This document shows positions 61,974-64,000 of a DNA stretch of 64,000 bases, piece after piece (positions within the stretch are counted from its first letter, which is position 1; every line of letters starts with the position of its first letter). The translations under genes were made by a program, and so were the position numbers. Under the pieces are notes generated by a model, which was given only the letters and a program-made list of their open reading frames with translations, did not search any database and was not told the origin of the DNA. The DNA comes from Limnohabitans sp. 2KL-27 (GTDB lineage Bacteria; Pseudomonadota; Gammaproteobacteria; Burkholderiales; Burkholderiaceae_C): positions 1,240,853-1,304,852 of the forward strand of contig NZ_CXOP01000002.1 of assembly GCF_001269345.1 (NCBI RefSeq). Direction: 5' to 3'.

Positions 61974-62101
61974 GCCACAACCCCAACAACACACCAGCTG
62001 GTGCCGCCGCGTGCGGCACGGCTTATCCGATGTCGTGGCCTTTGGCTGCGGATGCCCATCTGCGCGGGCTGTGCGCAACCCGGGTCGCAAGGCCTCGTTA
62101 A
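61970..62101 (+). CDS. Possible 43-residue leader ORF between bchZ and pufB
   Basis: An ATGA overlap with the bchZ stop opens a frame of 43 codons ending in TAA 12 bases before pufB. The product ([20 protein letters not shown]...) has no membrane helix, so it does not look like PufQ, which sits at this place in Rhodobacter. Two hairpins lie in it: GTGCCGC-CGCGT-GCGGCAC (62001-62019) and TGCGC-N7-GCGCA (about 62060-62076). Translation may instead serve to couple bchZ and puf expression. Confidence 0.3.
62001..62019 (+). other. Hairpin in the puf leader
   Basis: A perfect 7-bp stem GTGCCGC/GCGGCAC with a 5-base loop lies between bchZ and pufB, where the messages of photosynthesis superoperons are often processed. 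Confidence 0.5.
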
Positions 62102-62113
62102 CAGGAGCAAAAC

Positions 62114-62257
62114 ATGTCCACCAAGACATCAATTTCCGGACTCACCGATGAGGAAGCCCAGGAGTTCCACCACTACTGGATGCAGGGCACCGTGGGCTTC
62201 ACAGCAGTTGCTGTGCTGGCACACATCCTGGTCTGGGCGTGGCGTCCCTGGTTCTGA
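62114..62257 (+). CDS. pufB: Light-harvesting 1 beta polypeptide
   Basis: A 47-residue LH1 beta. [17 protein letters not shown] (N-terminal amphipathic part) and [15 protein letters not shown] (membrane helix with the bacteriochlorophyll-binding His and the aromatic RPWF end) are canonical. It forms the LH1 ring around the reaction centre with PufA. An AGGAG site precedes the ATG. It is too short for most gene finders but certain. Confidence 0.96.
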
Positions 62258-62301
62258 TTCAGAGCCTGTTTTTTCAACAATAGATTGACGGAGTCACTGT
62301 C

Positions 62302-62526
62302 ATGTCCAACACAACCCACCTCAACGAGGCCCATTCGCGTGCGGATGAGTCTCCCGCTTACTGGTCCATTTTCCTCATCGGATTCGGATGTCTGTTTGTG
62401 GTCGTCGTACTGGCCAAACTGGTCGGCGTTCACTGGCGGGATCTGCTGCCTGGTGCAGAAGATGCCAAGAGCATGAGTCAGGGTGTGAAAGCTGCTGTGT
62501 ACACCTTCATGTCCCACATCATTTAG
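62302..62526 (+). CDS. Unrecognised single-span membrane protein encoded between pufB and pufA
   Basis: A 74-residue protein: a polar N-terminus (1-20), one hydrophobic helix ([21 protein letters not shown], about 20-40), [10 protein letters not shown] at its end, and an amphipathic C-terminus closing [11 protein letters not shown]. It is neither an LH1 alpha nor beta: it lacks the AxxxH-W pattern of both, and true pufB and pufA flank it. Size and topology recall PufX of Rhodobacter, but no clear similarity can be claimed and PufX lies after pufM. A GGAG site, tight spacing to pufA (10 bases) and a pufB-like codon style indicate that it is expressed. A core-antenna accessory subunit is a reasonable guess. 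Confidence 0.8.
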
Positions 62527-62536
62527 GAGATTCACC

Positions 62537-62746
62537 ATGTGGAGAATTTGGCGACTTTACGACCCTTTGCGTGCCATGGTACTGCAGGGTATTTTCTTGT
62601 TTGGCCTGGCCGCGATGATTCACCTCATCTTGCTCAGCACCAACAAATTCAACTGGCTCGACGGCGCGAAAAAGCCCGTAGCAGCATCGGCGCAAAACTC
62701 GCCGCTGCCGACTGCAGTGGCTTCGCTCCCAGCGCCCAAGTCCTGA
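62537..62746 (+). CDS. pufA: Light-harvesting 1 alpha polypeptide
   Basis: A 69-residue LH1 alpha. [20 protein letters not shown] is the canonical start; the His in [20 protein letters not shown] binds bacteriochlorophyll, and the Trp downstream tunes the absorption. The C-terminal Ala/Pro-rich tail (residues 45-69) is longer than in most alpha polypeptides, as in Rubrivivax. It pairs with PufB in the LH1 ring. An AGGAG site precedes it; the preceding small gene ends 10 bases upstream. Confidence 0.96.
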
Positions 62747-62762
62747 TCCAGGACTTGCCGTC

Positions 62763-62799
62763 CAGGTGCTGTCATTGGACCCGTTCAATGCAGCACCTG
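62763..62799 (+). other. Strong intercistronic hairpin between pufA and pufL
   Basis: A 9-bp stem CAGGTGCTG/CAGCACCTG continues, after one bulged T, into CATTGGA/TTCAATG with a 4-base loop. A structure at exactly this place is known in puf operons to protect the upstream LH1 message, giving antenna excess over reaction centre. Confidence 0.8.
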
Positions 62800-62829
62800 T
62801 TCATCCACTGAAAGCAGGAGGACCCAACC

Positions 62830-63666
62830 ATGGCCATGCTGAATTTTGAGAAAAAGTACCGTGTTCGCGGTGGTACCCTGCTGGGTGGTGATTTGTTCGA
62901 CTTTTGGGTCGGACCGTTTTACGTCGGCTTTTTCGGCGTGACAACCTTGTTCTTTTCGTTCCTGGGTACAGCCCTCATCTTGTGGGGTGCCTCACAAGGG
63001 CCTACCTGGAACATTTGGCAAATCAGCATCGCACCGCCTGATTTGTCGTATGGCTTGCGATTTGCGCCCTTGATGGAGGGTGGTCTGTGGCAGCTCATCA
63101 CGGTGTGTGCCATTGGCGCCTTCGGCTCATGGATGATGCGTGAGGTCGAAATTTGCCGCAAGCTTGGCATGGGCTTTCATGTGCCCGTGGCCTTTGGTGT
63201 GGCCATCTCGGCCTACGTTACTTTGGTGGTCGTGCGTCCGGTGCTCATGGGCGCTTGGGGCCACGGCTTCCCGTATGGCATCTACAGCCACCTGGACTGG
63301 GTGTCCAACGTGGGCTACCAGTACCTGCACTTTCACTACAACCCGGCGCACATGATCGCCGTGAGTTTCTTCTTCGCCAGCGTGTTTGCACTGTCGCTGC
63401 ACGGCGGTCTGGTCCTTTCCTCCACCAATCCACAGCCTGGACAAGTGGTCAAAACGCCAGAGCATGAGGACACCTTTTTCCGCGACTTCATCGGCTATTC
63501 GGTGGGCACATTGGGTATCCACCGAGTCGGCCTGTTCCTGGCATTGGCGGCTGTCTTGTTCAGTGCGCTGTGCATCGTGCTCAGTGGTCCTTTCTGGAGC
63601 CGTGGCTGGCCCGAGTGGTGGAGCTGGTGGCTGAACCTGCCGATCTGGTCTCAGTGGCCTGTGTGA
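62830..63666 (+). CDS. pufL: Photosynthetic reaction centre L subunit
   Basis: A 278-residue five-span protein. [35 protein letters not shown] opens it; GISP-like [46 protein letters not shown] (special-pair and accessory bacteriochlorophyll His region) and the His of the non-haem iron site in [24 protein letters not shown] are present. It binds the special-pair bacteriochlorophylls and quinone with PufM. A GCAGGAGG site precedes the ATG. A 7-bp hairpin separates it from pufM. Confidence 0.97.
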
Positions 63667-63715: not shown

Positions 63716-64000
63716 ATGGCCGATTATCAAAACCTGTTCACCACGGTGCAAGCCGTGGGACCAGTCCATCACGGGGTTGAACTGGGTCACGGAAACAGTC
63801 CGCGCACCGGACAACCTTTGATCAATTACTGGATCGGCAAATTGGGCAACGCCCAGCTGGGTCCGATTTACCTGGGGGGCCTGGGTTTGGCCTCACTGGT
63901 GTGTGGCTTGATCGCCTTCACCTTGATCGGCATGAACATGCTGGCCTCGGTCAACTACGACCCGATCCAGTTCGTGCGCCAGCTGTTCTGGCTCTCGCTG
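63716..64000 (+). CDS. pufM: Photosynthetic reaction centre M subunit, cut by right edge
   Basis: The first 95 residues are visible. ADYQNLFTTVQAVGPVHHGVELGHGNSPRTGQP and FWLSL follow the M-subunit N-terminus, with the first membrane span (YLGGLGLASLVCGLIAFTLIGMNML) complete. It pairs with PufL to hold the special pair, pheophytins and quinones. An AGGAG site precedes the ATG. The rest, and any pufC, lies beyond the window. Confidence 0.96.
   Translation, partial: MADYQNLFTTVQAVGPVHHGVELGHGNSPRTGQPLINYWIGKLGNAQLGPIYLGGLGLASLVCGLIAFTLIGMNMLASVNYDPIQFVRQLFWLSL

What the first reader, a model, noticed from the sequence alone, without database searches (positions are those of the whole stretch)
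62302..62526. Extra single-span membrane protein gene inserted between pufB and pufA
puf operons I know place pufB and pufA side by side. Here a 74-codon gene with its own ribosome site separates them. Its product has one helix, a polar N-terminus, [10 protein letters not shown] at the membrane exit and an amphipathic C-terminus ([11 protein letters not shown]). It does not carry the alpha or beta chlorophyll-binding pattern. Size and topology recall PufX, but its place differs and similarity is not established. It could be a new LH1 component that shapes the ring or opens it for quinone.
Basis: partly seen in the sequence, partly recalled or inferred. Interest (0 to 1): 0.78.

Follow-up and report, generated by a model that had tools for sequence, protein, structure and literature searches.

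The report
Pigment-blind antenna protein between pufB and pufA
Most of the phototrophic Burkholderiales sampled carry, between their two core antenna genes, a third small membrane protein that derives from the antenna beta chain, has lost the residue that holds bacteriochlorophyll and keeps a very conserved tail; the gene was noticed decades ago without an explanation that I could find, and it may cap or shape the light-harvesting ring.

Summary
A 74-codon gene (62302-62526) separates pufB and pufA. It is not unique to this genome: in 107 of 107 loci fetched it lies directly before pufA, and pufB lies before it in 106, the last being cut by a contig end. Nor is the ORF new: by position it is 'ORF2' of Rubrivivax gelatinosus (cited to 1994) and 'ORF74' of Roseateles, co-transcribed with pufBA.

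What it is: a diverged LH1 beta chain. Its profile matches solved beta chains at E=4e-16 and, over its full length, tailed PufB of Burkholderiales that lack it. The bacteriochlorophyll-ligand His is kept in 1 of 128 members (here Lys). The C-terminal tail is almost invariant (dN/dS 0.03). Of 46 uncut pufL-bearing Burkholderiales genomes, 38 have short PufB plus X, 5 a tailed PufB without X, 3 short PufB plus a distantly related upstream ORF. I infer duplication of a tailed pufB with division of labour.

Function is inferred: a pigment-blind beta-like LH1 subunit, or an assembly factor, anchored by its tail. No PufX match was found; PufQ similarity is at control level.

New: the assignment and evolutionary model, not the ORF.

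The parts
62302..62526 (+). X (ORF2/ORF74 homologue by position): 74-aa beta-derived single-span protein
62290..62293 (+). ribosome-binding site GGAG of X
   Evidence: sequence
62350..62445 (+). predicted transmembrane helix of X (residues 17-48)
   Evidence: AlphaFold2 model, block pLDDT up to 89, mean 65
62416..62418 (+). Lys39, at the place of the BChl-ligand His of LH1 beta
   Evidence: alignment A2; His in 1 of 128 members
62434..62460 (+). W45-R46 and PGAE (residues 50-53), near-invariant membrane-exit motif
62476..62520 (+). near-invariant C-terminal helix (residues 59-73, holds [12 protein letters not shown])
62525..62529 (+). ribosome-binding site AGGAG of pufA, overlapping the stop codon of X (possible translational coupling)
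   Evidence: sequence; gap of 10 nt from X to pufA in 62 of 105 loci measured
62114..62257 (+). pufB, short LH1 beta (47 aa, no tail)
   Evidence: NF040862 E=8.3e-24
62537..62746 (+). pufA, LH1 alpha (69 aa)
   Evidence: NF040861 E=1.5e-17
62764..62800 (+). strong hairpin after pufA, candidate mRNA-stability element separating B-X-A from L-M-C
   Evidence: fold of 62740-62835, MFE -40.1 kcal/mol for the whole stretch; role inferred
62830..63666 (+). pufL
   Evidence: TIGR01157 E=3e-129
63716..64000 (+). pufM (runs off the window)
   Evidence: whole frame in L210

Best explanation
X arose by tandem duplication of a tailed pufB. One copy (today's pufB) kept both histidines and lost the tail. The other (X) kept the tail and much of the beta framework and lost both histidines. 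X is made from the same high-level pufB-X-pufA message. By homology to beta it inserts N-in/C-out. It packs beside an LH1 alpha helix or the reaction centre in a beta-like way but cannot hold the beta-side BChl in the usual manner, and its invariant tail docks on the periplasmic face of RC-LH1. It would thereby mark, cap or space one or a few special sites of the ring during assembly, and perhaps leave a local gap for quinone. Shown here: the beta ancestry, the lost ligand, the fixed position and the strong constraint on the tail. Shown by others: co-transcription. Inferred: the direction of the duplication, the topology, residence in LH1, docking, and any effect on the ring.
For: Profile A1 (45 members) against all PDB chains hits LH1 beta chains first (8z81_B E=4.4e-16, 9m8m_B 1.2e-12, 7xxf_B 9e-12). 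24 of 45 members hit the NCBIfam pufB model at E up to 1, best 4.9e-10. JGI names 37 of the 120 listed homologues (of 1638) 'light-harvesting complex 1 beta chain' by my count. Profile-profile against 4 tailed PufB of Burkholderiales: probability 99.7, 73 columns, score 127.6 against a best of 22.8 in 100 column-permuted controls; alpha chains give probability 3. X mostly keeps A-4, A/G-1, F-15, F-11, F/L-8, W+6 and R+7 of beta, but position 0 is Q, K, S, T and others, with His in 1 of 128. Of 46 uncut operons, 38 carry short beta plus X, 5 tailed beta without X, 3 short beta plus a related upstream ORF. X is one side of a branch (SH-aLRT 91). dN/dS by region: tail 0.03 (whole pufB 0.035), TM 0.16, N-terminus 0.19. 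Expression: pufB, ORF74 and pufA share the major 1-kb puf transcript in Roseateles (passages and Table 2 of PMC10037100).
Against: I found no proteomic or structural evidence that X is in the core complex. The window's member alone matches beta only weakly (E=0.0013) and has no Pfam or NCBIfam hit. Column-by-column conservation of the TM agrees only weakly with beta (rho 0.36, p 0.10), so 'packs like beta' is soft. Positive charges are more numerous on the C-terminal side (mean 2.8 against 1.4 K/R), which fits N-in/C-out poorly; beta itself is ambiguous (1.0 against 1.4). In Rps. palustris the C-terminal residues of the long beta are removed by cleavage (PMC7806223 passages), so a tail need not survive in the mature ring. 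The tree has few columns and no root, so the order of loss and gain is inferred. X and its tail persist in two genomes without a pufC match (G496, G524), so X does not serve only the cytochrome subunit.
Confidence: 0.5

Rival explanations
1. X is the PufQ-type factor of betaproteobacteria: it controls or delivers tetrapyrrole for photosystem assembly (PufQ binds ferrochelatase and steers flux to BChl) and is not a ring subunit.
For: Same size, one span, variable N-terminus, conserved C-terminus and puf-operon location as PufQ; [quoted passage not shown] Nine alphaproteobacterial-type loci and one Burkholderiales genus (G267, G385, G415) have, at the pufQ place upstream of pufB, a small ORF whose profile is related to X (probability 96, score 47 against at most 18.7 in 100 permuted controls); the seven seeds of that set were picked because they hit the X model, so the likeness is partly selected. 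In the Burkholderiales loci read it was not seen together with X.
Against: X against Rhodobacterales PufQ (21 sequences): probability 20, score 21.6, about the best of 40 permuted controls (21.0); the upstream ORF against PufQ is no better (21.8 against 23.6). PF05398 hits 1 of 28 genomes searched (G901) and none of the four with X among them. X is far closer to beta chains. If the tail is periplasmic, as in beta, it cannot meet cytoplasmic ferrochelatase; the PufQ paper itself predicts a cytoplasmic C-terminus.
Confidence: 0.2
2. X is an LH1 assembly chaperone: a beta mimic that nucleates or escorts alpha chains and leaves the mature complex.
For: Beta-like framework without ligand; the pufA ribosome site overlaps the X stop codon in the window and X lies directly before pufA in 107 of 107 loci, so X is made right before alpha; the tail of the long beta is cleaved in one species.
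Against: Nothing direct for or against. That a tail as constrained as this suits a permanent interface better is my expectation, not a result.
Confidence: 0.2
3. X is an ordinary second LH1 beta chain that binds BChl through another residue such as Gln.
For: Gln at the ligand place in 64 of 128 members; Gln can ligate chlorophyll in some proteins (recalled).
Against: Lys, Ser, Thr, Asn, Leu, Glu, Arg, Gly, Cys, Ala or His stand there in the other 64, Lys in the window; the cytoplasmic-side His-18 is mostly replaced too.
Confidence: 0.07

Closest known systems
ORF2 of Rubrivivax gelatinosus / ORF74 of Roseateles depolymerans
   Same: Same gene by position: loci of R. gelatinosus (two strains) and R. 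benzoatilyticus (L064-L066) carry X between pufB and pufA; ORF74 has the locus tag between those of pufB and pufA. The sequences printed for ORF2 and ORF74 were not compared.
   Different: In the passages I read it has no function and no family. PMC12817894 tested ORF2 only as a source of an alpha chain (pufA2) and rejected that.
LH1 beta polypeptide (PufB; PF00556, NF040862)
   Same: Profile homology, beta framework residues, single span; tailed PufB of some Burkholderiales aligns over the full length.
   Different: Ligand His lost in 127 of 128 members; the window's member has no Pfam or NCBIfam hit at E<=1; separate branch.
single-copy antenna-domain chain 8k5o_4 in the PDB
   Same: Matched by the X profile (E=0.003); 105 aa, one chain in one entry: a possible precedent for a one-copy antenna-like chain in a solved complex.
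   Different: Far weaker match than ordinary betas; its role was not looked up.
PufX
   Same: Small single-span protein of the puf operon without pigment ligand; X could likewise open the ring.
   Different: No PufX among the PDB matches of the profile; pufX follows pufM (PMC9640540 passages), X lies between pufB and pufA.
PufQ
   Same: Size, one span, conserved C-terminus, puf operon.
   Different: Profile similarity at control level; different place in the operon.
protein-W (PufW)
   Same: Replaces LH1 pairs and opens the ring, as X might.
   Different: Three transmembrane helices (PMC7806223 passages).
gamma-like polypeptides of LH1 (Rhodopila)
   Same: Extra small LH1 helices without pigment ligand.
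   Different: They lie between betas in the opposite orientation (PMC9640540 passages); X is beta-derived.

Membership tests
LH1 beta (PufB) | profile homology to LH1 beta chains | tested here: met
   family profile: 8z81_B E=4.4e-16; NF040862 hit by 24 of 45 members at E<=1, not by the window's member
LH1 beta (PufB) | BChl-ligating His at position 0 | tested here: not met
   Lys in the window; His in 1 of 128 members
LH1 beta (PufB) | cytoplasmic-side His at -18 | tested here: not met
   W 19, Y 8, L 7, R 7 and others of 69 X; in the 42 betas compared His 41, Asn 1, which was a selection rule of that script
LH1 beta (PufB) | part of the LH1 ring with BChl bound | not testable with these tools
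   needs cryo-EM or mass spectrometry
PufX | sequence similarity to PufX chains | tested here: not met
   no PufX named among 47 PDB sequences matched at E<=10; presence of PufX chains in the PDB is recalled
PufX | gene directly after pufM | tested here: not met
   X directly before pufA in 107 of 107 loci; in G000 pufM is followed by pufC
PufX | opens the LH1 ring for quinone exchange | not testable with these tools
   no structure
PufQ | match to PF05398 | tested here: not met
   G000, G042, G091 and G114, all with X, have no match; no PufQ among Pfam hits of 45 members
PufQ | profile-profile similarity above control | tested here: inconclusive
   score 21.6, best of 40 permuted controls 21.0
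PufQ | binds ferrochelatase | not testable with these tools
   needs pull-down
protein-W | three transmembrane helices | tested here: not met
   one predicted transmembrane helix
LH1 gamma | N-terminus periplasmic, between betas | not tested
   topology of X not measured; charge pattern ambiguous

The most novel reading that the evidence does not exclude
Phototrophic Burkholderiales solved ring opening in their own way: a beta chain was duplicated and blinded, and this pseudo-beta takes one fixed place in every core complex, held to the reaction centre by its invariant tail, so that the BChl ring is interrupted and quinone can pass. It would be a PufX analogue built from the antenna itself.
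Probability: 0.25. Interest if true: 0.75.

Novelty: new variant of a known kind. Interest (0 to 1): 0.55.

Why it matters
Different purple bacteria open or gate their LH1 rings with unrelated proteins (PMC7806223 passages), and no PDB chain of this family appeared in a profile search. X is present in 38 of 46 uncut phototrophic Burkholderiales genomes sampled, Limnohabitans among them, a major freshwater group (recalled). R. gelatinosus is genetically tractable (recalled), so an old 'ORF of unknown function' becomes a clear test: is there a pigment-blind beta in the ring? It is also a neat case of two functions of one chain (pigment ring, tail) apparently split over two genes.

Tried and rejected
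X as PufQ: looked attractive after upstream ORFs of alphaproteobacteria hit the X model, but true PufQ (21 sequences from loci) is at control level. My iterated upstream-ORF model had drawn in one X (L141); it was removed.

X as an anchor of PufC only: two X-bearing genomes (G496, G524, both 85% complete) have no pufC match.

X as an alpha chain: profile probability 3.

Column-permutation controls: for tailed alphaproteobacterial betas, 2 of 100 permuted alignments gave absurd scores of 132-136 over 29 and 7 columns, above the real 85.5, so I do not lean on that one comparison; among 100 permutations each of the Burkholderiales betas and the upstream ORFs there was no such case.

TM conservation compared with beta: weak, not significant (X members with His at position 0 and betas without it were left out by the script). 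Structure search: not run, because the model is mainly one helix at mean pLDDT 65. Nagashima 1994 is not held. Viral contigs, plasmids, phages and E. coli collections were not searched.

Full report
CHECK. The AGGAG of pufA overlaps its stop codon. The window's own protein has no Pfam or NCBIfam hit at E<=1.

DISTRIBUTION. A scan of genome contigs gave 98 relatives, of which the best 80 loci were kept; 27 of 200 genomes of the family, the window's own included, gave 27 loci more. The 107 loci hold 95 distinct X proteins; some loci are of the same or near-identical species. pufB is directly upstream in 106 (one contig begins about 20 bases before X) and pufA directly downstream in 107; the frame is open in all 107. 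They include named Limnohabitans and Rubrivivax strains. At order level, 48 of 399 genomes match pufL. I classified all 48 from their loci: 38 short pufB plus X, 5 a pufB with a tail of 27-28 residues and no X (G228, G363, G376, G448, G477), 3 short pufB plus a small upstream ORF (G267, G385, G415), 2 cut by a contig end (G344, G493). In one of the 38 (G250) X follows a short pufB but the contig ends there, and pufL lies on another contig. X models also match beta chains, so the '46 of 48' is not a count of X. In a phylum sample 22 of 398 genomes matched the profile. Four of the 22 carry X, all in the window's own family. Sixteen others show PufB chains with the ligand region intact in their loci. 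The two weakest (L173, L174) show no puf genes. X outside Burkholderiales was not seen in this sample.

LITERATURE. The ORF is known. PMC12817894 (passages read) says that the R. gelatinosus puf operon has two ORFs of unknown function, ORF2 upstream of pufA, citing Nagashima 1994 (not held); the authors asked whether ORF2 gave rise to an alpha chain and concluded that it did not. PMC10037100 (passages and Table 2 read) reports that pufA, pufB and ORF74 of Roseateles are co-transcribed as the major 1-kb puf transcript, show the greatest changes under carbon starvation, and fall to 0.71, 1.09 and 2.34% in a sigma-factor mutant. In nine searches of the open library (listings, and passages of eight papers) I saw no function and no beta ancestry assigned to this ORF; most papers of subscription journals are missing from that library.

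WHAT IT IS. A profile of 45 diverse members (A1) against all PDB sequences hits LH1 beta chains first, best E=4.4e-16. The R. gelatinosus member alone hits a beta chain at E=2.8e-10; the window's member alone is weak (0.0013). NCBIfam pufB is hit by 24 of 45 members, Pfam LHC by 5 of 45, both at E<=1. Profile-profile comparison gives probability 99.7 against tailed Burkholderiales betas (4 sequences, 73 columns), 98.9 against tailed alphaproteobacterial-type betas (13), 96.5 against short betas, 96 against the upstream ORFs (14), 20 against PufQ (21) and 3 against alpha. Controls with permuted columns: best of 100 is 22.8 against 127.6 real for the first and 18.7 against 47.0 for the upstream ORFs; two artefacts spoil the second comparison. 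In a 79-row tree X (31 rows) is one side of a branch (SH-aLRT 91), the upstream ORFs another (99), but columns are few and many forks are open. In the alignments X keeps much of the beta framework (A-4, A/G-1, F-15, F-11, W+6, R+7) and loses His0 and His-18. The residue at 0 is Q 64, K 33, S 13, T 8, N 2, L 2, and one each of E, R, G, C, A, H, of 128 distinct C-terminal stretches.

CONSTRAINT. In 36 Limnohabitans-type sequences dN/dS is 0.19 (N-terminus), 0.16 (TM), 0.03 (tail); pufB 0.035 (30 sequences), pufA 0.08 (33). Over 45 diverse members V66, Y67, T68, F69, M70 and S71 are at least 90% conserved, with no preferred face of the predicted helix (3050 of 5000 shuffles as high); the TM does have a conserved face (38 of 5000). 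A helix conserved all round suggests burial in a protein interface (inference).

ORIGIN. Tailed PufB of X-less Burkholderiales ends in sequences such as DGVKAAVNSFMPYVFMA (G228), close to X's [14 protein letters not shown]. X-bearing genomes of the sample have short PufB. Genus g170 holds both arrangements (tailed: G228, G448, G477; X: G273, G315, G354, G533, G558), and the short beta of G354 groups with two tailed betas in the tree (support 82). The simplest history is duplication of a tailed pufB and partition of ligand and tail; fusion, or transfer between lineages, is not excluded.

MECHANISM. See Best explanation. Steps shown: ancestry, lost ligand, position, constraint (here); co-transcription (by others). 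Steps inferred: duplication order, topology, residence in the core, docking, ring effect. The location before a strong hairpin after pufA (62764-62800) would put X in the high-copy part of the message, which argues for more than trace amounts, but copy number is unknown.

RIVALS. PufQ-like control of pigment flow is the most serious: architecture and operon agree, and a mechanism for PufQ is published (PMC5725709 abstract and passages), but sequence similarity to real PufQ is at control level. An assembly chaperone cannot be told from a subunit with sequence alone. PufX membership is excluded by place and by lack of a sequence match; working like PufX is not.

VERDICT. Observation confirmed; interpretation partly supported. 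A known but unexplained ORF gets a family (LH1 beta, pigment-blind) and a testable role.

Noticed in passing
window 62032-62094: Three-hairpin conserved element in the leader between bchZ and pufB: 20 pairs, 9 with changes on both sides, 94.6% of cells paired, 0 of 500 shuffles as high on any measure (12 sequences). No Rfam match reached a gathering score. A covariance model found it at E<0.01 in 38 of 76 puf loci given (the window's own copy L081 and some near-copies of model sequences are among them), all 38 on the pufB strand and 14-36 bases before the pufB start, 95 in one. They include tailed-PufB operons (L144, L153-L155) and L158, from outside the order; one (L166) is a partial match. 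Possibly an undescribed puf leader RNA.
   Followed up: partly
window 62250-62274: Hairpin over the pufB stop codon followed by a T-rich run (GGTTCTGATTCAGAGCCTGTTTTTT): terminator-like, could tune the ratio of pufB to X and pufA.
   Followed up: no
L138 1945-2178, L139 1932-2159 (numbered on the reverse complement), L140 1582-1809; also L157, L158, L160-L162, L164, L166, L167, L169: Small single-span ORF upstream of pufB in genomes outside the order and in one Burkholderiales genus, distantly related to X and beta; 7 of the 12 end in P-F-x-F-M plus one residue. Their genomes have no match to the Pfam PufQ model. Candidate unrecognised PufQ analogue.
   Followed up: partly
L210 5641-6000 and 6055-7452 (G000, outside the window): A second antenna pair (two PF00556 hits over cut-off) and a 465-aa membrane-protein-like frame downstream of pufC, perhaps LH2 genes and pucC; the latter was not searched.
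   Followed up: no
G496, G524 (L149, L156): Burkholderiales puf operons with X but no PF02276 cytochrome-subunit match anywhere in the assembly (both 85% complete).
   Followed up: no
G200, G249, G293, G333, G370: A near full-length PF02276 (pufC-like) match away from the puf operon in all five genomes of genus g142 in the sample.
   Followed up: no
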